A DNA stretch of 42,914 nt, from positions 1 through 42,914 of IMG/VR virus record IMGVR_UViG_3300021594_000673; one strand, given 5' to 3'. Origin of the DNA: a virus. Below, in pieces: positions 22,007 through 28,894 of the stretch. Each line of letters starts with the position of its first letter. Positions within the stretch are counted from its first letter, which is position 1. The notes below the pieces were generated by a model that saw only the letters and a program-made list of their open reading frames with translations, searched no databases and was not told where the DNA came from. The position numbers and the translations under genes were made by a program.

Positions 22007-22041
22007 AACTATAAATACACGTTGATAATAAAAAATAATTG

Positions 22042-22117
22042 TAGCGTAGACTGGATTCGAACCAGCGTGCCTCTGCTCCCAAAGCAGATGAGATAAACCT
22101 GACTCCTCTACTACGCT
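22042..22117 (-). tRNA. tRNA-Pro(TGG)
   Basis: Acceptor AGCGTAG/CTACGCT, discriminator A, anticodon stem TCTGC/GCAGA with loop TTTGGGA. Last tRNA of the array that begins at 23803. Confidence 0.9.
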
Positions 22118-22126
22118 ATTTTTTTG

Positions 22127-22200
22127 TGGACCGTGACGGATTCGAACCGTCGACCCCCTGCGTGCAAGGCAGGTGCTCTAGCCAACTGAGCTAACAGCCC
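22127..22200 (-). tRNA. tRNA-Ala(TGC)
   Basis: Acceptor GGGCTGT/ACGGTCC with two G-T pairs, anticodon loop CTTGCAC on stem CCTGC/GCAGG, discriminator A. Confidence 0.9.
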
Positions 22201-22208
22201 TTATTTTT

Positions 22209-22282
22209 GCGGTCCCACCGGGAATCGAACCCGGCACTTTGCCGTGACAGGGCAATATTATAGCCGATTAACTACAGGACCG
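22209..22282 (-). tRNA. tRNA-Asp(GTC)
   Basis: Acceptor CGGTCCT/GGGACCG, anticodon stem TTGCC/GGCAA with loop CTGTCAC. Confidence 0.88.
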
Positions 22283-22296
22283 TAGTTAGTAAATCC

Positions 22297-22331
22297 GGGC
22301 CCAACAAGCCGTAATAAACACGGAAGGGCCC
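22297..22331. other. GGGCCC-closed hairpin between tRNAs
   Basis: GGGCCC at 22297 pairs with GGGCCC at 22326, enclosing CCGT/ACGG with a seven-base loop. On the plus strand a T run follows, so it could also act as a terminator for antisense transcription. Confidence 0.5.
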
Positions 22332-22350
22332 TTTTTAAGATTCACATTTG

Positions 22351-22423
22351 AGCGGGAGACCGGATTCGAACCGGCGACCCCAACCTTGGCAAGGTTGTGC
22401 TCTACCAACTGAGCTACTCCCGC
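22351..22423 (-). tRNA. tRNA-Gly(GCC)
   Basis: Acceptor GCGGGAG/CTCCCGC, anticodon stem CAACC/GGTTG with loop TTGCCAA, discriminator T. Confidence 0.92.
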
Positions 22424-22426
22424 AAC

Positions 22427-22552
22427 AAAAAGAAACTTTCCTTCTACGCTCACCGTAGGTTTAGATTTTACCGATGGTTTGTTCCCCATCACCTGTTATG
22501 TGTGCACCATAGAGCAGGGTCCATTACAGAGTCGTAAGGAAAGGTTCTTTTT
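22427..22552 (-). ncRNA. cloverleaf-like structured RNA between two tRNA-Gly genes
   Basis: The ends form a 17-bp stem with one mismatch (22427-22443 with 22536-22552). Inside lie at least three hairpins: CTACG/CGTAG, GATGG/CCATC, and CCTG/CAGG enclosing TATG/CATA with a seven-base loop. It fills the whole gap between tRNA-Gly(GCC) and tRNA-Gly(TCC), has no ORF of note, and does not carry the TTCRA T loop of a tRNA. Function unknown. Confidence 0.5.
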
Positions 22553-22553
22553 G

Positions 22554-22625
22554 AGCGAGTGGGGAGAATCGAACTCCCATCTCCAGCTTGGAAGGCTGGA
22601 GTAATAGCCTTTATACGACACTCGC
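22554..22625 (-). tRNA. tRNA-Gly(TCC)
   Basis: Acceptor GCGAGTG/CACTCGC, anticodon stem CCAGC/GCTGG with loop CTTCCAA, discriminator T. Confidence 0.92.
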
Positions 22626-22632
22626 ATTTTTG

Positions 22633-22830
22633 GGTGGAATCAGACTAGTTCTGTCCACCGAGACCTTGTCGTTAACTTTCGTCAGAGCGTACCAAGACAC
22701 AAGATTTTAAAAACCCCCACAGTTTCTATTGGCCAAATATTCTTATGGGGGGTTGTTAACGCTTATGCCTTGGGTTATTCACGTTAACTCTATCTACCAC
22801 TGTGATGTTCTTACGGTAATCATCGTGGTA
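22633..22830 (-). ncRNA. structured spacer RNA in the tRNA array
   Basis: This 200-base gap contains nested inverted repeats: GGTGGA/TCCACC with inner CAGA/TCTG near 22633-22660; CGTTAAC/GTTAACG enclosing AACCCCC/GGGGGTT with an inner TTGGCCAA palindrome; and TACCAC/GTGGTA near 22795-22830. No gene is visible. The dense pairing suggests an ordered RNA. Confidence 0.4.
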
Positions 22831-22835
22831 CTTGG

Positions 22836-22906
22836 TTGCGAACCTAGGACTCGAACCTAGAACTTTGGGTTATGAGCCCAATATGTTACCATTACACCAA
22901 CTCGCC
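22836..22906 (-). tRNA. tRNA-Met(CAT), initiator-like anticodon stem
   Basis: Anticodon stem TTGGG/CCCAA with loop CTCATAA gives the three G-C pairs typical of initiator tRNA. The acceptor is GGCGAGT with GTTCGCA, leaving positions 1 and 72 unpaired (G, A), another initiator-like trait. The D arm (GTG, TAATGGTAA, CAT) is small, so elongator identity is not excluded. Confidence 0.75.
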
Positions 22907-22916
22907 ATATATTTGG

Positions 22917-22995
22917 TTGTGATTAGAGGACTCGAACCTCTGACGGGGGGCGACCCAATTCGGTTCATGAGACCGACGTTACACCTGTATCACAA
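22917..22995 (-). tRNA. atypical tRNA with CAT anticodon
   Basis: The anticodon arm TCGGT/ACCGA with loop CTCATGA and the T arm AGAGG/CCTCT with TTCGAGT are good. The acceptor is about 6-7 bp (TGTGAT/ATCACA), the D arm is too short to pair normally, and the variable region is about 18 bases with a GGG/CCC mini-stem. It may be a decayed or specialised tRNA. Confidence 0.5.
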
Positions 22996-23000
22996 TTTGG

Positions 23001-23072
23001 TAGCGGGGACAGGATTCGAACCTGTGACCTCAAGGTTATGAGCCTTGCAAGCTACCTCTGCTCTACCCCGCT
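23001..23072 (-). tRNA. tRNA-Met(CAT)
   Basis: Acceptor AGCGGGG/CCCCGCT, anticodon stem CAAGG/CCTTG with loop CTCATAA, T loop TTCGAAT. The 5' part (GCGGGGTAGAGCAG) resembles bacterial initiator tRNA, but positions 1-72 pair and the stem has only two of three G-C pairs. Confidence 0.8.
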
Positions 23073-23082
23073 ATTTAAAAAA

Positions 23083-23389
23083 GTTGTAATTAGTTTAGAG
23101 GTTGGTAACCTATAGGTCGTACGTACCATCACTTGTACTTTGTGTCAGGGGTTCACCCCATACCTCCATTTGCTGATTAATAAGGATTTGAACCTTAATC
23201 CTGCATCCCAATTACGTTCTGCCGTGCCCCATACACCATAACCAATCGGAAGTTTCGAACCTTCCAGTCTCAGGGTAATTAATCCTGAGGTTTGTGGATA
23301 ATACAGGAATCGAACCTGCGTCTGAGAATCACCTCTGTGGTACCACTCCACTAATTAGCCTATTCAAGTTAATTACTCTTGAATGTTTG
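23083..23389 (-). ncRNA. structured spacer with degenerate tRNA-like elements
   Basis: No gene is seen. There are T-arm-like hairpins (TAAGG/CCTTA with loop TTCAAAT near 23181-23197; GGAAG/CTTCC near 23248-23263) and GGGG-TTCA-CCCC near 23149. The best element is 23295-23360: acceptor GGCTAAT/ATTATCC with one mismatch, D arm GTGG/CCAC, T arm GCAGG/CCTGT with TTCGATT, but an anticodon arm cut to GAG/CTC with a six-base loop. Confidence 0.4.
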
Positions 23390-23545
23390 TAGTCAGGACA
23401 GGGCTCGAACCTGTAGCGCCGGATTACTGCAGTTACGGCATTCGTCCTAGGTAAGCTCTTTCAACCATACACCATCATAGGACTAAGCGTCTTCCAAGTT
23501 ATAAGGGGACTATATGTCTGCTTATAAGCATTTCGCCACCTGACT
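23390..23545 (-). ncRNA. enlarged tRNA-like element (AGTCAGG family)
   Basis: The ends are tRNA-like: acceptor AGTCAGG/CCTGACT, discriminator A, T arm ACAGG/CCTGT with loop TTCGAGC. The interior is 80 bases too long: the D region has an extra GCTTA/TAAGC hairpin and the anticodon position has GTCCTA/TAGGAC closing a loop of about 28 bases. The same ends recur at 26100, 26300 and 26421. Confidence 0.5.
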
Positions 23546-23555
23546 ATTTATTTGG

Positions 23556-23629
23556 AGCCTCCGGACGGATTCGAACCGCCGACCCACTGATTACAAATCA
23601 GTAGCTCTGGCCAACTGAGCTACGGAGGC
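23556..23629 (-). tRNA. tRNA-Thr(TGT)
   Basis: Acceptor GCCTCCG/CGGAGGC, anticodon stem ACTGA/TCAGT with loop TTTGTAA, T loop TTCGAAT. Confidence 0.92.
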
Positions 23630-23633
23630 ATTT

Positions 23634-23729
23634 AAGTTACATCGTACAGGCATTCTACTTCCAGTTCCGAGAACTTGTATCTAATTTAACCCTACTCACC
23701 ACTGTACGGGTACCTGAGGATATAACTTT
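23634..23729 (-). ncRNA. structured spacer RNA
   Basis: A 10-bp end stem (AAGTTATATC with GATGTAACTT, one G-T) encloses CGTACAG/CTGTACG and AGTTC/GAACT hairpins. It fills the gap between tRNA-Thr and tRNA-Glu and holds no gene. Confidence 0.45.
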
Positions 23730-23731
23730 TG

Positions 23732-23803
23732 TACTCGGTAGGGGAGTCGAACCCCTCTTACCAGGATGAAAACCTGAGGTCCTAACCGATAGACGAACCG
23801 AGC
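23732..23803 (-). tRNA. tRNA-Glu(TTC)
   Basis: Acceptor GCTCGGT/ACCGAGT, anticodon stem TCAGG/CCTGG with loop TTTTCAT, T loop TTCGACT. First tRNA of the array that runs down to 22042. Confidence 0.9.
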
Positions 23804-23812
23804 AATTTTTTT

Positions 23813-23835
23813 ATTACCAACATGTCAAAGAACTT
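23813..23835 (-). promoter_or_regulatory. boxA-like antitermination element
   Basis: On the minus strand the core GTTCTTTGACATGTTGG lies 10 bases upstream of tRNA-Glu. It matches the boxA pattern (GCTCTTTAACA) of rRNA leaders at 9 of 11 positions and is identical over 23 bases to 28390-28412, which lies at the same place before the other large array. Confidence 0.6.
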
Positions 23836-23852
23836 TTTTGTTCTGTTGTCAT
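23814..23852 (-). CDS. possible 12-residue leader peptide
   Basis: An ORF MTTEQKSSLTCW starts about eight bases after the expected transcription start and ends inside the boxA-like element. It begins with Thr-Thr-Glu, and Glu and Thr are the first two tRNAs of this array. Being so short it could be chance. Confidence 0.25.
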   Translation of the reverse strand: MTTEQKSSLTCW

Positions 23853-23866
23853 CTTCAACAACAATA

Positions 23867-23898
23867 CAAAGTTAATACATTTTTTTGATATTGACAAA
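23867..23898 (-). promoter_or_regulatory. Bacteroidota-type promoter of the 22-23.8 kb tRNA array
   Basis: On the minus strand TTTG, exactly 20 bases, then TAACTTTG. It reads into the boxA-like element and tRNA-Glu. Confidence 0.7.
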
Positions 23899-23906
23899 CA
23901 TAACCA

Positions 23907-23940
23907 AAAAAAAACCCATCCTTTTGAGATGGGTTTTTGT
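23907..23940. terminator. bidirectional intrinsic terminator
   Basis: AAACCCATC pairs with GATGGGTTT with A and T runs on both flanks. It separates the tRNA array promoter from the aminotransferase unit. Confidence 0.8.
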
Positions 23941-23956
23941 AAGATTTTTTACAATA

Positions 23957-24025
23957 TTATCCCATCTCCACTTTGGAAGTATCACCCTCTGTTGCTGGTG
24001 TGCCGAATATGAATATGGTTTTCAT
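23957..24025 (-). CDS. possible 22-residue peptide
   Basis: MKTIFIFGTPATEGDTSKVE begins a 22-codon ORF that ends 17 bases before a terminator, downstream of the aminotransferase. Placement is gene-like, but length gives little support. Confidence 0.25.
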   Translation of the reverse strand: MKTIFIFGTPATEGDTSKVEMG

Positions 24026-24081
24026 CGAATGTATTATTATTTGATTTCTTATTAAATATAGTAATATTTTGAAAAAATCAA

Positions 24082-25350
24082 TCAAAATACCATAGAATTT
24101 ATAAAACTATTTGATTTTAATACGGATTTTTCAATTGTATCAAGAATAAAATCCAAATTTAATGATGAAATGTTACCAATTGAGATTCTAAACCATCCTT
24201 TATTTTCTTTGGAACCAAAATATTCAAAAGGAACAATTCCCAATCCACAAGTATTAATTAAGAACGAAATATATTCTTCTGTAGATGAAAATGAATGGAC
24301 ATAACCCAAATAAACTGAAATATAAATTCCACCATCAGGTTTTTGATAATCAACATCTAAACCCTTTGTCTTCAACTCTTGAAACTTTTCACATATTTGG
24401 GTTGATAAATATTCATACTCTTTTGTAACATAATCAATGTGTGACAAATAATCATCATGATTTTCTTTGATGTATCTGGCCAATGCTGTTTGTTCAGGTT
24501 TTGGTGCCCAAGCTCCGATATGAGACAAGACCTCAGTCATTTTCCCAATCACATCTTTTGGTCCAAACAACCAACCAACACGAACACCAGTTGCGTTTAA
24601 TGATTTTGAAATACCGTCAGCACAAATCAAATAATCTTTAATTTCAGGACACAGTGTTAATGGGTGTACAAATAAACCATCTTTGGTAATGTCAGAATAA
24701 ATTTGGTCAAAGAACAAATACAATGGTCTTGTATATGCTTGATTTTTTCTGATATTGTTTTCATCAACAATTACCTGACAAATACCTTTCAAAACTTCTG
24801 AATTAATTACACGACCTGTTGGATTTTGTGGTGAACAAATACAAATTAAAGATGTATTGTCCCTCAATTTATTTTTAACATCTTCAACGGTTGGAAAAAA
24901 TGAATTTTCAGGTGAACATTCAATTTCTTGTTTTTCAGCGTTATGTAAAAAACAATAATGGTTGTTATTCCAAGATGGTGTTGGATAAATAACACCCTCA
25001 CCCGGATTTACCATTGATTTATAAACTGTATAAATCAAAGGTCTAACACCACCACCAATTAAGATTTCTTCAGGTGAATAATCAACATTGAATTGATGTT
25101 TAATATGTTTTGAAACAGATTCCCTTAACTCAATTTCACCTTGTGAATTTGGATAATTTGTTAAACCATGTTCATAAGCTTCTTGAATGTAATCACTTAA
25201 TTTTGTTGGTATTGGCCATAATTTGGAACTAAAGTCACCAATGGTTAAGTTTGATACAGGTTTTGTTTTTGCAATTTCTTTGATTTGTTGTGAGATTTTG
25301 ATAATCTCAGAACCGACGATTTGGTTCCCTACTCTTGATAATTTTTCCAT
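24082..25350 (-). CDS. PLP-dependent aminotransferase, class I/II
   Basis: The 422-residue protein is full length for fold-type I aspartate-aminotransferase-like enzymes. Visible motifs are the substrate/cofactor loop NYPNSQGEIELRESVSKHIK-type start, CSPQNPTGRV (cofactor-ring Asn), FFDQIYSDI (Asp and Tyr of the PLP site) and ADGISKSLNATGVRVGW, where Lys of SKSL forms the Schiff base and R is the phosphate anchor. It would move an amino group between an amino acid and 2-oxoglutarate-like acceptor; the substrate is not readable. A TATTTATA box precedes it. It sits between two tRNA arrays, an unusual place for a metabolic gene. Confidence 0.8.
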   Translation of the reverse strand: MEKLSRVGNQIVGSEIIKISQQIKEIAKTKPVSNLTIGDFSSKLWPIPTKLSDYIQEAYEHGLTNYPNSQGEIELRESVSKHIKHQFNVDYSPEEILIGGGVRPLIYTVYKSMVNPGEGVIYPTPSWNNNHYCFLHNAEKQEIECSPENSFFPTVEDVKNKLRDNTSLICICSPQNPTGRVINSEVLKGICQVIVDENNIRKNQAYTRPLYLFFDQIYSDITKDGLFVHPLTLCPEIKDYLICADGISKSLNATGVRVGWLFGPKDVIGKMTEVLSHIGAWAPKPEQTALARYIKENHDDYLSHIDYVTKEYEYLSTQICEKFQELKTKGLDVDYQKPDGGIYISVYLGYVHSFSSTEEYISFLINTCGLGIVPFEYFGSKENKGWFRISIGNISSLNLDFILDTIEKSVLKSNSFINSMVF

Positions 25351-25359
25351 CTGTTAAAA

Positions 25360-25367
25360 TATAAATA
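25360..25367 (-). promoter_or_regulatory. TATTTATA motif, putative phage promoter
   Basis: On the minus strand TATTTATA ends nine bases upstream of the aminotransferase ATG. Confidence 0.35.
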
Positions 25368-25391
25368 ACTTGTTTTGAATAATCAACTTTG

Positions 25392-25465
25392 TAGCGAGGA
25401 ACGGAATCGAACCGTTAACCTTCTGCGTATGAAACAGACGCTCTAACCAATTGAGCTACCTCGCC
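25392..25465 (-). tRNA. tRNA-Met(CAT), elongator-like
   Basis: Acceptor GGCGAGG/CCTCGCT, D arm GCTC/GAGC, anticodon stem TCTGT/GCAGA with loop TTCATAC as in elongator tRNA-Met, T loop TTCGATT. Confidence 0.88.
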
Positions 25466-25475
25466 AAAACTATAA

Positions 25476-26084
25476 TTAGTTTATTACCCCTCCATCAGAT
25501 GTAAACAATTCAACGGTTGATGCTTTCCCCGAATTATCCAAATAATCCTCAATTTCTAACTCAACAGTTTTAAAGAAAATTTTATCAATATAATCATAAT
25601 CGCCTTCAGGTGTTACAATACTACCTGTCATAAATGTAAAATCTTCTACTGTTGGAACATCATCTGACTCAAAGTTCATGTAATACAACCCACCTTTATT
25701 CTCATCAACCATCAACAGAACGTTATTGTTACCATTTTCATTTGGAAATGCGTTATACTCTTCAAGACGATTATGTGTGTAATAATCATCAATCACCTCA
25801 TCCAAAGCCAACATATCTTGAATATCAAATTTTAACACCTCTTTCCCTTCTTCATCCTCAATAACAAAATTCATTCCTCCGTTATCAAACGCTTTTGATA
25901 AATGAAACAGTTCACCATCCCAAATGTCAATGTCTAAAAGTTGGTCCAATTCAAAACGGGCTTCCCACAAATTTTCATACCCATTTTCGCTCATAAACTC
26001 TTTAATTTTTGAAACTTGCTCATCGGTTAATGATTTTCCGATTGCTTCCATTTGCCATCCGTAACAATTTAGTGTATATTTCAT
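25476..26084 (-). CDS. hypothetical acidic protein, paralogue of 8318-8866
   Basis: The 202-residue protein begins MKYTLNCYGWQMEAIGKSLT and carries DIDIWDGELFHLS, then FVIEDEEGKEVLKFDI, the same order as in the product of 8318-8866. It is strongly acidic with no enzyme motif. It lies between tRNA-Met and tRNA-Ile(TAT) and is probably co-transcribed with them. Confidence 0.5.
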   Translation of the reverse strand: MKYTLNCYGWQMEAIGKSLTDEQVSKIKEFMSENGYENLWEARFELDQLLDIDIWDGELFHLSKAFDNGGMNFVIEDEEGKEVLKFDIQDMLALDEVIDDYYTHNRLEEYNAFPNENGNNNVLLMVDENKGGLYYMNFESDDVPTVEDFTFMTGSIVTPEGDYDYIDKIFFKTVELEIEDYLDNSGKASTVELFTSDGGVIN

Positions 26085-26099
26085 ATTTCCTGTTATTAG

Positions 26100-26172
26100 T
26101 AGTCAGGACGGGATTCGAACCCATAACCTTGATGATATAAGCATCCTGCGCTCACCATTGCGCCACCTGACT
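26100..26172 (-). tRNA. tRNA-Ile(TAT)
   Basis: Acceptor AGTCAGG/CCTGACT, D arm GCGC/GCGC, anticodon loop CTTATAT on a 4-bp stem GATG/CATC, T arm ATGGG/CCCGT with TTCGAAT. Reads AUA. It shares its acceptor with three aberrant tRNA-like elements. Confidence 0.8.
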
Positions 26173-26179
26173 AAATTTG

Positions 26180-26297
26180 CAAAGATATATGGTGTCGCTC
26201 CACAGCCTCTACAACCTAAGGATTTCGCTCAGAAGGGATATTATCCGCTCCGTACTTTTCCAAATTGCTAACCCTGTCCTTTTAGACAGATATCTTC
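26180..26297 (-). ncRNA. structured spacer between tRNA-like genes
   Basis: The ends carry AAGATAT/ATATCTT, and shorter inverted repeats lie inside. No gene is seen. It joins tRNA-Ile(TAT) to the tRNA-like element at 26300. Confidence 0.3.
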
Positions 26298-26299
26298 GG

Positions 26300-26377
26300 T
26301 AGTCAGGACAGGATTCGAACCTGTAACACCGGTTTGACCACTCACGTGGTCGCGTCTAACCATTCCGCCACCTGACT
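26300..26377 (-). ncRNA. tRNA-like element with a tetraloop in place of the anticodon
   Basis: Acceptor AGTCAGG/CCTGACT, a Leu-type D arm (GCGGAATGGTTAGACGC) and T arm ACAGG/CCTGT with TTCGAAT are intact. The anticodon arm is GACCAC-GTGA-GTGGTC, a 6-bp stem with a GNRA tetraloop, or at best a six-base loop on 5 bp. A small variable arm follows. No usable anticodon is seen. Confidence 0.55.
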
Positions 26378-26420
26378 ATTTCTTTGGTTTTTTAGTGAGA
26401 ACCGTTGATAAAACTCTCTG

Positions 26421-26525
26421 TAGTCAGGACAGGATTTGAACCTGCACAAAGTAGCTTATTCGCACCTTAAAGGTTTGGGCCATCTTACTTTACTTTCGTT
26501 GCGTCTACTATTCCGCCACCTGACT
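26421..26525 (-). ncRNA. enlarged tRNA-like element (AGTCAGG family)
   Basis: Acceptor AGTCAGG/CCTGACT, Leu-type D arm (GCG, GAATAGTAGA, CGC) and T arm with TTCAAAT are kept. The centre is about 60 bases: AAAGTA/TACTTT closes a long loop with TTTAAGG, which could be a Leu(TAA) anticodon loop but lacks a 5-bp stem. Confidence 0.5.
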
Positions 26526-26603
26526 ATGGTTGTCAGTCTCTCCTGACCGTCACCCCCACTCCGAAGGTATCAGCCTTCATTGTGAAACTGGGTTAGTTTT
26601 TCA
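26526..26603 (-). other. spacer with short hairpins
   Basis: GTCAG/CTGAC and GAAGG/CCTTC inverted repeats lie between two tRNA-like elements. No gene is seen. Confidence 0.3.
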
Positions 26604-26735
26604 TAATTAGAGCCGGTCTCGAACCGGATACCGTTCAGGACGGATTAGACAACCTTACGACGCAACGACCACCAATTACAGGTGACCGCCAATCTTGGGG
26701 ACTCGGGTACCATCCCTCATTACGCCCATCTAATT
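26604..26735 (-). ncRNA. enlarged tRNA-like element, AATTAGA acceptor
   Basis: Acceptor AATTAGA/TCTAATT with discriminator A, and a T arm CCGG/CCGG with TTCGAGA. The 132-base interior contains TCACC/GGTGG with a seven-base loop TGTAATT and other inverted repeats, so it is far from a standard cloverleaf. Confidence 0.45.
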
Positions 26736-26741
26736 ATTTTG

Positions 26742-26816
26742 TGGTGTGAGAGGGAATCGAACCACTCGGCACACGGGGTTTCAAACCGTTGCTCTACCTA
26801 CTGAGCTACCTACACC
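26742..26816 (-). tRNA. tRNA-Phe(GAA)-like
   Basis: Acceptor GGTGTAG/TCACACC with one mismatch, D arm GCTC/GAGC, anticodon arm ACGGT/CCCGT (one mismatch next to the loop) with loop TTGAAAC. The T stem is weak. A better tRNA-Phe lies at 28310, so this may be a diverged second copy. Confidence 0.6.
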
Positions 26817-26828
26817 ATTATTATAATA

Positions 26829-26860
26829 CAAAGTTAAAACATATTACCCAATTTTCCAAA
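26829..26860 (-). promoter_or_regulatory. Bacteroidota-type promoter of the 25.4-26.8 kb tRNA array
   Basis: On the minus strand TTTG, exactly 20 bases, then TAACTTTG, reading into the tRNA at 26816. The -33 box lies inside the end of the upstream gene. Confidence 0.7.
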
Positions 26861-27320
26861 CACCATTAATGTATTTTTTCATTTTTTTACCATCTTCAAT
26901 GTTACCAATAACCACACCATCTTTGATGGTAAATGCATGTCCTCTAACAACCACCACGTAAGTACCTTTTGGATATTTTTTGATAAAAGAACCCGTTGTA
27001 GTACTTCTAAGGGTTTTAACCCCTTTCACTACAACGTAGTACAACATGGTACTATATTCTTCAGAGATAATTTCAACAGATTTACCGTTAATTTTTTCAC
27101 CATTTTTAGACATTAGGTTCATAGTAACACCAAAACCAAAAGTTCCTTTACGATTTTGTCTTTTAAATTTTTGTTTAACAAACTGATGAGCCGAATCATA
27201 GTCCATTTCAGCTGCAGATGCGATTGCTCTTACAACACAATCACCTGACTCACTTTTAGCCAATGCGGATTCTTTAGCACCTTTGATAAATTCGGTTGAA
27301 GAAATATATCCTGTTGTCAT
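26844..27320 (-). CDS. papain-like cysteine peptidase-like protein
   Basis: I start at the ATG at 27320, just after a good promoter; the longer frame runs through three tRNAs. The 158-residue protein has ESGDCVVRAIASAAEMDYD (Cys at the start of a helix) and, 90 residues later, VVVVRGHAFTIKDGVVIGN (His at the start of a strand), the Cys-helix/His-strand layout of small papain-like phage proteins. Activity is not proven. Confidence 0.5.
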   Translation of the reverse strand: MTTGYISSTEFIKGAKESALAKSESGDCVVRAIASAAEMDYDSAHQFVKQKFKRQNRKGTFGFGVTMNLMSKNGEKINGKSVEIISEEYSTMLYYVVVKGVKTLRSTTTGSFIKKYPKGTYVVVVRGHAFTIKDGVVIGNIEDGKKMKKYINGVWKIG

Positions 27321-27324
27321 GATA

Positions 27325-27356
27325 CAAATATACAACAGATATTTGACTTTACCAAA
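27325..27356 (-). promoter_or_regulatory. Bacteroidota-type promoter
   Basis: On the minus strand TTTG, exactly 20 bases, then TATATTTG, five bases before the ATG at 27320. It lies next to the last tRNA of the 12-tRNA array. Confidence 0.7.
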
Positions 27357-27364
27357 AAAAGTTG

Positions 27365-27436
27365 CTCCCCGACCTGGATTCGAACCAGGGACCGCTCGGT
27401 TAACAGCCGAGTGCTCTACCGCTGAGCTACCGAGGA
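27365..27436 (-). tRNA. tRNA-Asn(GTT)
   Basis: Acceptor TCCTCGG/TCGGGGA, anticodon stem CTCGG/CCGAG with loop CTGTTAA, T loop TTCGAAT. Last tRNA of the 12-tRNA array. Confidence 0.95.
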
Positions 27437-27441
27437 ATATG

Positions 27442-27523
27442 TACCAAAGGTGGGAATCGAACCCACATGTCCCGAGGACATTAGTTTCTAAGACTAACGC
27501 GGCTACCTTTACGCCACTTTGGT
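27442..27523 (-). tRNA. tRNA-Leu(TAG)
   Basis: Acceptor ACCAAAG/CTTTGGT, anticodon stem TTAGT/ACTAA with loop CTTAGAA, long variable arm. Only clear Leu tRNA in the window. Confidence 0.93.
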
Positions 27524-27529
27524 ATTTTG

Positions 27530-27600
27530 CAGGCCAGGAGGGATTCGAACCCCCAACAACAGTTTTGGAGACTGTCATGATACCATTTCACTACTGACCT
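27530..27600 (-). tRNA. tRNA-Trp(CCA)
   Basis: Acceptor AGGTCAG/CTGGCCT, discriminator G, anticodon stem ACAGT/ACTGT with loop CTCCAAA. Its anticodon arm is close to that of the amber tRNA at 28646. Confidence 0.93.
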
Positions 27601-27608
27601 GTGTGTTG

Positions 27609-27682
27609 TGATTCCTGAGGGACTCGAACCCCCAACCTTTTCGTCCGTAGCGAAACGCTCTAATCCATTGAGCTAAGGAACC
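27609..27682 (-). tRNA. tRNA-Arg(ACG)
   Basis: Acceptor GGTTCCT/AGGAATC, anticodon stem TTTCG/CGAAA with loop CTACGGA. A34 would need TadA deamination to read CGU/CGC/CGA. Confidence 0.93.
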
Positions 27683-27688
27683 ATTTGG

Positions 27689-27763
27689 GGTGACTGATGG
27701 GGCTTGAACCCACGACCTTTGGTACCACAAACCAACGCTCTAAACCAACTGAGCTACAGTCAC
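27689..27763 (-). tRNA. tRNA-His(GTG)
   Basis: Acceptor GTGACTG/CAGTCAC with discriminator C, anticodon stem TTGGT/ACCAA with loop TTGTGGT. The base at -1 in the DNA is T, not the G usual for His. Confidence 0.92.
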
Positions 27764-27764
27764 A

Positions 27765-27839
27765 GAGTCCATAGTTGGAATCGAACCAACGAATAACAGT
27801 TTTGCAGACTGTCCCTTTTACCATTCAGGCATATGGACT
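27765..27839 (-). tRNA. tRNA-Cys(GCA)
   Basis: Acceptor AGTCCAT/ATGGACT, anticodon stem ACAGT/ACTGT with loop CTGCAAA, T loop TTCGATT. The D stem is weak and the discriminator is C. Confidence 0.88.
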
Positions 27840-27900
27840 TATATTCTATAAGTCTCCAAAACTAGTAAAAAAAGCGAGTTTTGGAGGATTATAAGTTTTG

Positions 27901-27982
27901 TGCCAGCAGTAGGACTCGAACCTACGAACTCAAATGAGGCTTGATTTACAGTCAAGTGCAATTGCCGCTATGCGATACTGGC
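27901..27982 (-). tRNA. tRNA-Tyr(GTA)
   Basis: Acceptor GCCAGTA/TGCTGGC, anticodon stem CTTGA/TCAAG with loop CTGTAAA, long variable arm as in bacterial Tyr. A short TCCAAAA hairpin lies in the gap before tRNA-Cys. Confidence 0.93.
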
Positions 27983-27988
27983 ATTTTG

Positions 27989-28061
27989 TCTTTCCTGTTG
28001 GATTTGAACCAACGACCCTCTGCATGTAAGGCAGATGCTCTTCCAACTGAGCTAAGGAAAG
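27989..28061 (-). tRNA. tRNA-Val(TAC)
   Basis: Acceptor CTTTCCT/AGGAAAG, anticodon stem TCTGC/GCAGA with loop CTTACAT. Confidence 0.95.
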
Positions 28062-28067
28062 ATGTTG

Positions 28068-28142
28068 TGACCCCGTCGGGACTCGAACCCGAAACCCCCT
28101 CATTAAAAGTGAGGTGCTCTAAACCAATTGAGCTACGAAGTC
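28068..28142 (-). tRNA. tRNA-Lys(TTT)
   Basis: Acceptor GACTTCG/CGGGGTC, anticodon stem CCTCA/TGAGG with loop CTTTTAA. Confidence 0.95.
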
Positions 28143-28148
28143 ATATTG

Positions 28149-28219
28149 TTACCCCTGAAGGACTCGAACCTCCATTCAGTGGACCAAAACCACTTGTCCT
28201 GCCATTAGACGAAAGGGTA
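28149..28219 (-). tRNA. tRNA-Gln(TTG)
   Basis: Acceptor TACCCTT/AGGGGTA, anticodon stem AGTGG/CCACT with loop TTTTGGT. Confidence 0.93.
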
Positions 28220-28227
28220 ATTTATGG

Positions 28228-28301
28228 TTGGTGATACAGGACTTGAACCTGTGACCCCTACGGTATCAGCGTAGTGCTCTAACCAACTGAGCTAATCACC
28301 A
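28228..28301 (-). tRNA. tRNA-Ile(GAT)
   Basis: Acceptor TGGTGAT/ATCACCA, anticodon stem CTACG/CGTAG with loop CTGATAC. Confidence 0.95.
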
Positions 28302-28309
28302 ATGTATTG

Positions 28310-28382
28310 TGGGACGGGGTGGACTCGAACCACCATGGCTGGATTTTCAGTCCAGTGCATTGACCATCTTTGCTACCGTCCC
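28310..28382 (-). tRNA. tRNA-Phe(GAA)
   Basis: Acceptor GGGACGG/CCGTCCC, anticodon stem CTGGA/TCCAG with loop CTGAAAA. First tRNA of the 12-tRNA array. Confidence 0.95.
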
Positions 28383-28389
28383 ATTTTTG

Positions 28390-28412
28390 ATTACCAACAT
28401 GTCAAAGAACTT
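28390..28412 (-). promoter_or_regulatory. boxA-like antitermination element
   Basis: Identical over 23 bases to 23813-23835; on the minus strand the core is GTTCTTTGACATGTTGG, seven bases before tRNA-Phe and just after the leader terminator. rRNA boxA recruits NusB/S10 to let polymerase pass terminators in untranslated RNA. Confidence 0.6.
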
Positions 28413-28418
28413 AAAAAC

Positions 28419-28448
28419 AAAAAACCCGAACCTTGTGAGTTCGGGTAT
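28419..28448 (-). terminator. leader terminator (attenuator) of the 12-tRNA array
   Basis: On the minus strand ACCCGAAC pairs with GTTCGGGT and a T run follows. The 5' arm ACCCGAAC can instead pair with AGTTCGGGT (28481-28489) in the end of the leader ORF, which would block the terminator. This is the arrangement of a translational attenuator. Confidence 0.7.
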
Positions 28449-28468
28449 CCTTTTTAGGCTACTACGTG

Positions 28469-28564
28469 TTAACTTAAAACACCCGAACTTGCAAATAAGC
28501 GAATATACCAATTCTGACAGAATTGAATGACATGTTTCACGATTTGTTTATTTACGAGTTTCAT
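28469..28564 (-). CDS. leader peptide of the 12-tRNA array, 31 aa
   Basis: The ORF starts 24 bases after a good -7 box and stops about 20 bases before the terminator hairpin. Residues 2-24 use only K, L, V, N, Q, I, H, F, C, W, Y and R, each at least once; these are exactly the 12 amino acids of the 12 tRNAs at 27365-28382. D, E, G, A, S, T and P are absent from that stretch. After it come A, S, S, G, V, L, S, where the codons for S-S-G form the antiterminator arm. I infer that slow decoding at any of these codons changes leader folding and lets polymerase reach the tRNAs. Confidence 0.7.
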   Translation of the reverse strand: MKLVNKQIVKHVIQFCQNWYIRLFASSGVLS

Positions 28565-28587
28565 TGTGTTTGTTATTAAATATAGTA

Positions 28588-28618
28588 CAAAGATACAAAA
28601 GTTTATTGATATGTCAAA
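28588..28618 (-). promoter_or_regulatory. Bacteroidota-type promoter of the 12-tRNA array
   Basis: On the minus strand TTTG, 19 bases, then TATCTTTG. It reads into the leader peptide at 28564. Confidence 0.75.
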
Positions 28619-28645
28619 TATTTTTTATTTTTTTTTTATTTTTTG

Positions 28646-28717
28646 TGGCCCTGACGGGGTTCGAACCCGTGACTATCAGTTTTAGAGACTGCAATGTTAC
28701 CGCTACACCACAGAGCC
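28646..28717 (-). tRNA. tRNA-Sup(CTA), amber suppressor
   Basis: Acceptor GGCTCTG/CAGGGCC, discriminator A, D arm GTG, TAGCGGTAA, CAT, anticodon stem CAGT/ACTG (outermost pair G-A open) with loop CTCTAAA, T arm ACGGG/CCCGT with TTCGAAC. C34-T35-A36 reads UAG. The arm is one base from that of tRNA-Trp(CCA) in this window; the D arm resembles Gln-type tRNAs, so the inserted amino acid is open. Confidence 0.88.
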
Positions 28718-28721
28718 AATT

Positions 28722-28796
28722 AGAGGTCGGAGATAGATTTCCACTATCCTAAGGGGTCTTGCGGACCCTCACCTAAGTACTCAGCCACCCGACCTT
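28722..28796 (-). ncRNA. tRNA-like element without a TTC T loop
   Basis: Acceptor-like AGGTCGG/CCGACCT and a Ser/Leu-type start (GGTGGCTGAGTACT) are present. The middle hairpin GGGT/ACCC has loop CCGCAAG (C at position 33), and the T-arm hairpin GATAG/CTATC has loop TGGAAAT in place of TTCRA. Probably not a normal substrate for the ribosome. Confidence 0.45.
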
Positions 28797-28798
28797 AT

Positions 28799-28894
28799 AT
28801 GTGATTAATGGTGGTCTAACACCTCAACTTTCAACTGATACGTTTTATGTGTGCCTCACATGGTCTAATCGTCACTGTCACTTTTCAATCACAA
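28799..28894 (-). ncRNA. structured element at the 5' end of the suppressor-tRNA transcript
   Basis: End stem TTGTGATT/AATCACA, hairpin ATGTG/CACAT and hairpin GGTG/CACC with loop TTAGAC. It begins where the promoter at 28897 should start transcription. No gene is seen. Confidence 0.4.

What the first reader, a model, noticed from the sequence alone, without database searches (positions are those of the whole stretch)
26100..26525. Family of tRNA-like RNAs with one acceptor/T arm but remodelled anticodon regions
Seen: AGTCAGG/CCTGACT acceptor, similar D start and T arm occur at 26100-26172 (normal tRNA-Ile TAT), 26300-26377 (anticodon arm replaced by a GNRA-capped hairpin), 26421-26525 (+30 bases) and 23390-23545 (+80 bases). 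23295-23360, 26604-26735 and 28722-28796 show the same theme with other acceptors. Keeping the aminoacylation/processing ends while changing the anticodon domain suggests function outside decoding, such as decoys for anticodon nucleases, CCA-addition or RNase P competitors, or tRNAs spread by recombination and decaying.
Basis: partly seen in the sequence, partly recalled or inferred. Interest (0 to 1): 0.8.

Follow-up and report, generated by a model that had tools for sequence, protein, structure and literature searches.

The report
Phage tRNA-shaped RNAs without anticodons
Many uncultured phages that probably infect Bacteroidota carry small RNAs that keep the ends and folded elbow of a transfer RNA but replace the code-reading part with many different structured RNA pieces, so they probably do something other than translation.

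Summary
Four minus-strand genes in a phage tRNA array share AGTCAGG...CCTGACTAC: one tRNA-Ile, three without an anticodon arm. Among 249 distinct non-canonical copies the middles form 213 sequence clusters, fold better than shuffles and show compensatory changes. Anticodon arms are no commoner than in shuffled middles. The encoded C74 and strand match the true tRNAs of the same phages. Some middles occur in other frames, two without any tRNA frame. The neighbouring 26605-26735 element belongs to a separate covarying tRNA-like family (82 contigs, 27 acceptor sequences).

Best reading: small RNAs on a tRNA chassis. The tRNA ends would give maturation and stability (inferred); the exchangeable module would be the working part (inferred). 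Non-decoding is well supported by sequence. Expression, charging and targets are untested. Decay is refuted for the class, although a few members look damaged. An anticodon-nuclease decoy is unlikely, because there is no anticodon loop.

The parts
26301..26377 (-). tRNA-chassis RNA, 77 nt; anticodon arm replaced by 6-bp hairpin GACCAC-GTGA-GTGGTC followed by AACCGG
   Evidence: Rfam tRNA 42.6 bits, ARAGORN finds no proper anticodon; relatives in 10 viral contigs plus L246 with changes on both sides of the hairpin
26422..26525 (-). tRNA-chassis RNA, 104 nt, no anticodon arm; middle closed by a helix near AAAGTA/TACTTT
   Evidence: scan; relative in L291 with compensatory changes in middle helix and T stem, one G-U in acceptor
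23391..23545 (-). tRNA-chassis RNA, 155 nt; hairpin inserted in D loop, then GTCCT...AGGAC domain and GCCG...CGGC hairpin in place of anticodon and variable arms
   Evidence: scan; relatives L031, L219, L220 aligned
26101..26172 (-). Ordinary tRNA-Ile (anticodon TAT) with the same AGTCAGG acceptor
   Evidence: ARAGORN and Rfam 62.5 bits
26605..26735 (-). Member of the GCGTAATGAGG tRNA-like family, acceptor AATTAGA, with two extra hairpins
   Evidence: 82 contigs; 59 of 61 unique cores have a tRNA frame; 99.3% of cells paired, all 7 acceptor pairs change on both sides
28724..28795 (-). tRNA-like RNA with acceptor AGGTCGG, hairpin with CGCAA loop in place of anticodon arm, atypical T loop TGGAAAT
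   Evidence: one relative, L220, 72% identity, loop kept while stem changes on both sides
23295..23360 (-). tRNA-like RNA with shortened anticodon arm
   Evidence: Rfam tRNA 46.5 bits; matches in 7 loci, best 86%
23175..23247 (-). tRNA-like RNA, acceptor GATTGGT, with standard T loop; not called by ARAGORN or Rfam
   Evidence: matches in 11 loci; pairing read from sequence
22041..28795 (-). tRNA and small-RNA array that holds the elements above

Best explanation
These genes make small stable RNAs on a tRNA chassis. Shown by sequence: acceptor stem, D arm, T arm, the discriminator and an encoded C74 are kept; the anticodon arm is replaced by structured modules that differ between phages and within a phage; modules are inherited separately from D arm and frame. 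Inferred: the array is transcribed as one RNA, host RNase P, 3' processing and CCA addition cut out and finish each RNA as they do the true tRNAs, and the chassis protects it from exonucleases. Inferred further: the module is the working part, most likely binding and blocking or titrating a host molecule during infection; rapid turnover of modules fits an arms race with host defences or host factors. The fixed AGTCAGG acceptor, whose 3' end was not found in 295 of 296 sampled Bacteroidota genomes, may mark the RNAs for one shared enzyme or keep them out of translation.
For: Unbiased 3' end: of 131 elements found by the 5' end and given a partner, 107 have exactly CCTGACT and 111 have A73. C74 in 242 of 248 non-canonical and 212 of 212 canonical genes; nearest tRNA-like gene within 1 kb is on the same strand 154 times, opposite once, none 93. 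No anticodon arm above shuffles: 10 of 249 against 9.1; 3 with T33 against 1.85. Middles fold better than shuffles: 134 testable of 249, mean z -0.74. Covariation: 14 compensatory, 15 one-sided, 9 broken pairs in 25 clusters; 56 two-sided cells against 10.4 shuffled in the 26605 family. Module exchange and frame-free copies in L021 and L157.
Against: No transcript data. No target found: no excess complementarity to own locus, rRNA or tRNAs, no shared motif, no conserved neighbour protein (best in 20 of 184 loci). Nine pairs are broken, some middles fold worse than shuffles, and a few elements have damaged 3' ends. The zero within-locus similarity (0 of 155 pairs) is what the low between-locus rate (53 of 30,721) would predict anyway, so it shows no selection for diversity. 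The collection was drawn with AGTCAGG and CCTGACT patterns, so acceptor frequencies are biased.
Confidence: 0.5

Rival explanations
1. Charged but non-decoding tRNAs: the Leu-type D arm and A73 let a synthetase charge them, and they donate an amino acid to a non-ribosomal reaction or tie up EF-Tu or the synthetase.
For: D arm GGCGGAAT.GGTAGACGC is Leu-like by recall, A73 in 111 of 131; leucyl- and seryl-tRNA synthetases of E. coli ignore the anticodon (recalled).
Against: Does not need hundreds of different structured middles; D arm also comes in non-Leu forms; sister families use G73 (37 of 37) or 27 acceptors.
Confidence: 0.15
2. Decoys or competitors for tRNA enzymes (RNase P, CCA-adding enzyme, anticodon nucleases).
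For: The 3' signal and frame are kept; tRNA-cutting defences are common (recalled).
Against: No anticodon loop to attract anticodon nucleases; competition at the ends gives no reason for variable, covarying modules.
Confidence: 0.1
3. RNA parts that assemble with each other, like the RNA-only cages of ROOL and GOLLD found near phage tRNA islands.
For: 23391 relatives carry GTATAC or CTGCAG in an apical loop in 3 of 4; the third family has a GCCGGC loop, which was part of its search pattern; PMC12286853 passages on tRNA islands.
Against: 6-base palindromes are depleted in AGTCAGG middles (106 against 144 of 249) and palindromic hairpin loops are at chance (24 against 24.8).
Confidence: 0.08
4. 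Y-RNA-like partners of a Ro/TROVE protein.
For: Weak TROVE matches in 4 of 45 records.
Against: 41 of 45 records have none, the window included (records may be fragments); Rfam YrlA matches are weak and do not lie on these elements.
Confidence: 0.05
5. Recombined and decaying tRNA genes without function.
For: Some elements have broken acceptors or T arms; a true tRNA-Ile shares the acceptor.
Against: Frame kept while middle changes, compensatory changes, maturation signals kept, deep families in 82 and 53 contigs.
Confidence: 0.05
6. Intron-containing tRNAs whose middle is spliced out.
For: Many elements are longer than a tRNA.
Against: Elements of 66-77 nt have no room for an intron plus anticodon arm; no conserved anticodon-arm halves flank the middles.
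Confidence: 0.02

Closest known systems
Canonical tRNA (Rfam RF00005)
   Same: Acceptor stem, D arm, T arm, A73, encoded C74; many elements score above the Rfam cut-off
   Different: No anticodon arm; a structured middle of very variable length and sequence instead
Engineered tRNA scaffold for RNA expression (PMC3753655; passages read)
   Same: Acceptor, T and D arms kept, foreign RNA placed in the anticodon arm, gains stability
   Different: Laboratory construct; here natural genes in phages with unknown RNA effectors
ROOL and GOLLD RNAs (PMC12286853; passages read)
   Same: Phage RNAs of unknown function encoded near tRNA islands
   Different: Much larger, without the tRNA frame described here; no Rfam match here
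YrlA bacterial Y RNA (RF02553)
   Same: tRNA mimicry with a second functional domain (recalled)
   Different: No match on these elements; Ro/TROVE rare in these records
tmRNA
   Same: tRNA-like ends with a large insert (recalled)
   Different: 3:70 pair is U-A, not G-U; ARAGORN calls no tmRNA in the window
T4 stable RNAs C and D in the T4 tRNA cluster
   Same: Non-tRNA stable RNAs inside a phage tRNA array (recalled only)
   Different: Not compared here; a paper search found nothing to read

Membership tests
Functional (decoding) tRNA | Acceptor stem, D arm and T arm | tested here: met
Functional (decoding) tRNA | 5-bp anticodon stem with 7-base loop in place | tested here: not met
   10 of 249, shuffled 9.1; with T33 3 of 249, canonical set 187 of 212
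Functional (decoding) tRNA | CCA end and aminoacylation | not testable with these tools
   C74 encoded in 242 of 248; charging needs an experiment
tmRNA | G3-U70 alanine identity and tag reading frame | tested here: not met
   acceptor pair 3:70 is U-A in AGTCAGG/CCTGACT; no tmRNA call in window; tag frame not examined further
YrlA / Y RNA | Covariance-model match to RF02553 | tested here: not met
   only weak matches, none on these elements
YrlA / Y RNA | Ro (TROVE) partner encoded with it | tested here: inconclusive
   4 of 45 records, window negative, records may be fragments
ROOL / GOLLD | Rfam model match | tested here: not met
ROOL / GOLLD | Location near phage tRNA genes | tested here: met
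tRNA-scaffold architecture | Foreign structured RNA in place of the anticodon arm of an intact tRNA frame | tested here: met
tRNA-scaffold architecture | Matured by tRNA enzymes and stabilised in the cell | not testable with these tools
   inferred from signals shared with true tRNAs
T4 RNAs C and D | Sequence or structure homology | not tested
   recalled only

The most novel reading that the evidence does not exclude
Phages of Bacteroidota run a natural tRNA-display library: a phage-specific tRNA chassis, orthogonal to host tRNAs in its acceptor, that carries exchangeable, fast-evolving RNA effector modules which inhibit host or defence proteins. Each phage would hold several different ones, matured by the host's own tRNA enzymes.
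Probability: 0.3. Interest if true: 0.92.

Novelty: new variant of a known kind. Interest (0 to 1): 0.8.

Why it matters
tRNA genes in phages are read as translation helpers or tRNA replacements. Here many of the tRNA-shaped genes in one group of phages cannot decode and instead present structured RNA modules. If they are expressed, phages have been using the tRNA scaffold that laboratories invented for RNA expression, and hundreds of ready-made natural RNA modules with unknown targets are available to test. It also warns that tRNA counts in phage genomes mix decoding and non-decoding genes, since many of these score as tRNAs.

Tried and rejected
Antisense guides: longest exact match of 218 middles to their own locus 9.76 against 9.74 for shuffles; to SSU rRNA 8.58 against 8.46, LSU rRNA 9.15 against 9.05, array tRNAs 8.90 against 8.95. 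CRISPR-repeat mimicry: V-A repeat stems in 0 of 212 middles, other repeat-like frames at chance. Shared motif: no strong k-mer. Internal T loops: 4 of 249 against 0.4 expected, too few to explain the class. Dimerisation through palindromic loops: at chance, and palindromes are depleted. A conserved partner protein beside the elements: none. Relatives by the neighbouring 544-aa protein: none. Cultured phages with the AGTCAGG frame: none in INPHARED by blastn of 26298-26377, and no match for the L219 (23391-type) or third-family elements. Intron and decay readings: see rivals. The first alignment of the GCGTAATGAGG family (A1, 47 of 59 sequences) misplaced the acceptor of members with shorter spacing; the pair counts use A2 with 34 of 59.

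Full report
What is there. The window is a whole IMG/VR record of 42,914 bases. Its minus strand carries a dense array at 22041-28795 with most tRNA isotypes. Four genes share AGTCAGG...CCTGACT: 26101-26172, 26301-26377, 26422-26525 and 23391-23545. The first is a normal tRNA-Ile(TAT). The other three keep the tRNA ends, T arm and discriminator A, but have no anticodon arm; 23391-23545 also has a hairpin in its D loop. Shuffled windows give no such hits (0 in 20). CCTGACTAC occurs four times in the window, once at each of these genes. A Por secretion tail domain and a thymidylate synthase closest to Flavobacterium phage immuto (57%) point to a Bacteroidota host.

A widespread frame. A scan of IMG/VR for AGTCAGGTGGCGGAATNGTNAGACGC gave 10 contigs. 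Nine show the same 3' end and different middles, three of the ten being near-identical; the tenth is cut off by its contig end. In 84,980 cellular genomes the looser 5' pattern hit 6 contigs, all of metagenome-assembled genomes, four of them under 8 kb. In 296 Bacteroidota genomes a tRNA 3' end with CCTGACTA occurred in one only, the genome used as centre, on the contig already found. Of 20 large viral records, 18 have exact TTCRANTCCTGTCCTGACTA, up to 8 copies each. In the INPHARED phage collection I found no match to the frame beyond ordinary tRNA T arms.

Constant frame, variable middle. In the loci then held and the window, a scan found 517 unique tRNA-like elements: 220 with a canonical anticodon arm and varied acceptors, 297 without, of which 229 have AGTCAGG, 11 GGTCAGG and 8 AGTTAGG. 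These loci were fetched by AGTCAGG/CCTGACT patterns, so the proportions are biased. I kept 249 unique members in 174 loci, 66-190 nt long, median 105; elements spanning two genes were dropped. Their middles fall into 213 clusters, 188 of them singletons. Of 155 pairs within a locus none are similar; between loci 53 of 30,721 are, so this shows non-redundancy but not selection for it. Later, two copies of the 26301 subfamily were seen side by side in L218.

No anticodon. A perfect 5-bp stem with 7-base loop in the right place occurs in 10 of 249, against 9.1 in shuffled middles. With T33 required it is 3 of 249, 1.85 in shuffles, and 187 of 212 canonical genes.

RNA-level signals. Elements found by the 5' end alone test the 3' end without bias: 107 of the 131 with a partner have exactly CCTGACT; of the other 24, 15 are wobble variants and nine carry a mismatch; 15 more elements had no partner. 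With more loci, 17 of 173 lacked a partner, 8 of these at a locus edge, and several of the remaining nine look damaged. The base after the discriminator is C in 242 of 248 non-canonical and 212 of 212 canonical genes. The nearest tRNA-like gene within 1 kb is on the same strand 154 times and opposite once; 93 have none. So the elements share the 3' signal and orientation of true tRNAs. That they are processed like tRNAs is inferred.

Structured and covarying middles. Of 249 middles, 134 could be delimited; they fold better than dinucleotide shuffles (mean z -0.74, t-test p 6e-15), though some fold worse. Across 25 clusters of two or more, predicted pairs are unchanged 245 times, changed on one side 15, compensatory 14 and broken 9. 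In L023 against L064 a helix GTTGAA/TTCAAC becomes GAGCAA/TTGCTC around an unchanged loop.

The window's own elements have relatives. 26301-26377: ten contigs with hairpin GGCCCC-GTYGA-GGGGTT (one copy in L218 differs slightly) followed by AACCGG, and L246 with ACCAC-ATAA-GTGGT; the GNRA loop is not conserved, and the 5' acceptor strand varies through G-U pairs. 23391-23545: L031, L219 and L220 share TTAGTCCT...AGGACGAAT and a second hairpin that changes on both sides; the D-loop hairpin is different or absent in each. 26422-26525: L291 with compensatory changes. 28724-28795: L220, with loop CGCAA kept and stem changed.

A second, deep family. 26605-26735 matches GCGTAATGAGG...GGTNCC...RARTCC in 82 contigs. 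Of 61 unique cores, 59 have a tRNA frame with at most one acceptor mismatch (53 with none); there are 27 acceptor sequences, 24 of the 59 being AGTCAGG. The frame search itself demanded pairing. On 34 of the 59, 99.3% of cells pair (shuffled 89.8%), 56 cells change on both sides (shuffled 10.4), all seven acceptor pairs do so, and sliding the partner by one base destroys it. A third family of about 156 nt, not in the window, was found in 53 contigs; 37 of 41 unique cores have a perfect frame, all 37 with G73. So AGTCAGG is the commonest acceptor of two families with different T arms.

Modules move. Similar middles sit on different D arms (L013, L182, L188; L022, L057). The L110/L121 middle occurs in L021 closed by a plain helix and not by a tRNA frame, and part of the L148 middle occurs in L157 outside any frame. 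This is the strongest sign that frame and module are separate units.

What was not found. No complementarity above chance to own locus, rRNA or tRNAs. No shared motif. No conserved neighbour protein. No Rfam family other than tRNA at gathering scores in 17 further loci, and at the window's elements only tRNA; a third-family member matched nothing over a cut-off. TROVE proteins, partners of Y RNAs, match weakly in 4 of 45 records.

Mechanism. The best-supported reading is a natural version of the engineered tRNA scaffold (PMC3753655, passages): tRNA ends for maturation and protection, a structured RNA in place of the anticodon arm as the working part. Architecture and loss of decoding are shown from sequence; transcription, maturation, effector action and target are inferred. 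Ten paper searches over an open-licence library listed no title or abstract describing such a class. Subscription journals and most preprints are not held, so absence from print is not shown. I call it a new variant of a known kind (tRNA-like RNAs), while noting that I found no described counterpart of the frame-plus-exchangeable-module organisation.

Noticed in passing
window 22466-22528 (-): Rfam freshwater-1 RNA (73.8 bits) inside the tRNA array; similar sequence in 10 loci.
   Followed up: partly
window 23632-23728 (-): Unannotated conserved RNA between tRNA genes, similar sequence in 26 loci.
   Followed up: partly
window 26527-26603, 22628-22700, 23240-23296 and 28797-28885 (-): Further inter-tRNA stretches similar to sequence in 8, 10, 10 and 2 loci, some with visible paired changes (CTCAGG/CCTGAG to CATAGG/CCTATG); the array looks like an island of small RNAs.
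   Followed up: partly
L301 5560-5800 and 36 other framed loci: Third tRNA-like family of about 156 nt, G73 in 37 of 37, conserved CGTCT-type loop, GCCGGC apical loop and palindromic hairpins in the D loop; 53 contigs.
   Followed up: partly
L225 6326-6441 = Cellulophaga phage phi17:2 91325-91440: Unannotated tRNA-like gene without a canonical anticodon arm in a cultured phage; a laboratory handle on the class.
   Followed up: partly
L221 20247-20329 (Flavobacterium phage immuto 3-5A): Gene annotated tRNA-Cys that fails my anticodon-arm test.
   Followed up: no
window 23806-24080 and 28384-28640 (-): Upstream of two tRNA blocks: a short reading frame (MKTIFIFGTPATEGDTSKVEMG at the first, similar DNA in L028 and L294), a terminator-like hairpin, then GTTCTTTGACATGTTGG, which resembles a boxA antitermination site (boxA recalled).
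   Followed up: no
window 28646-28717 (-): tRNA with anticodon CTA, named tRNA-Pyl by ARAGORN from the anticodon; a possible amber suppressor.
   Followed up: no
AGTCAGG-frame middles in all loci: 6-base palindromes are depleted (106 of 249 elements against 144 in shuffles, sd 8), as expected under restriction pressure.
   Followed up: no
L034 2485-2559: AGTCAGG-frame gene with a perfect anticodon arm reading TGA (serine) but no long variable arm.
   Followed up: no
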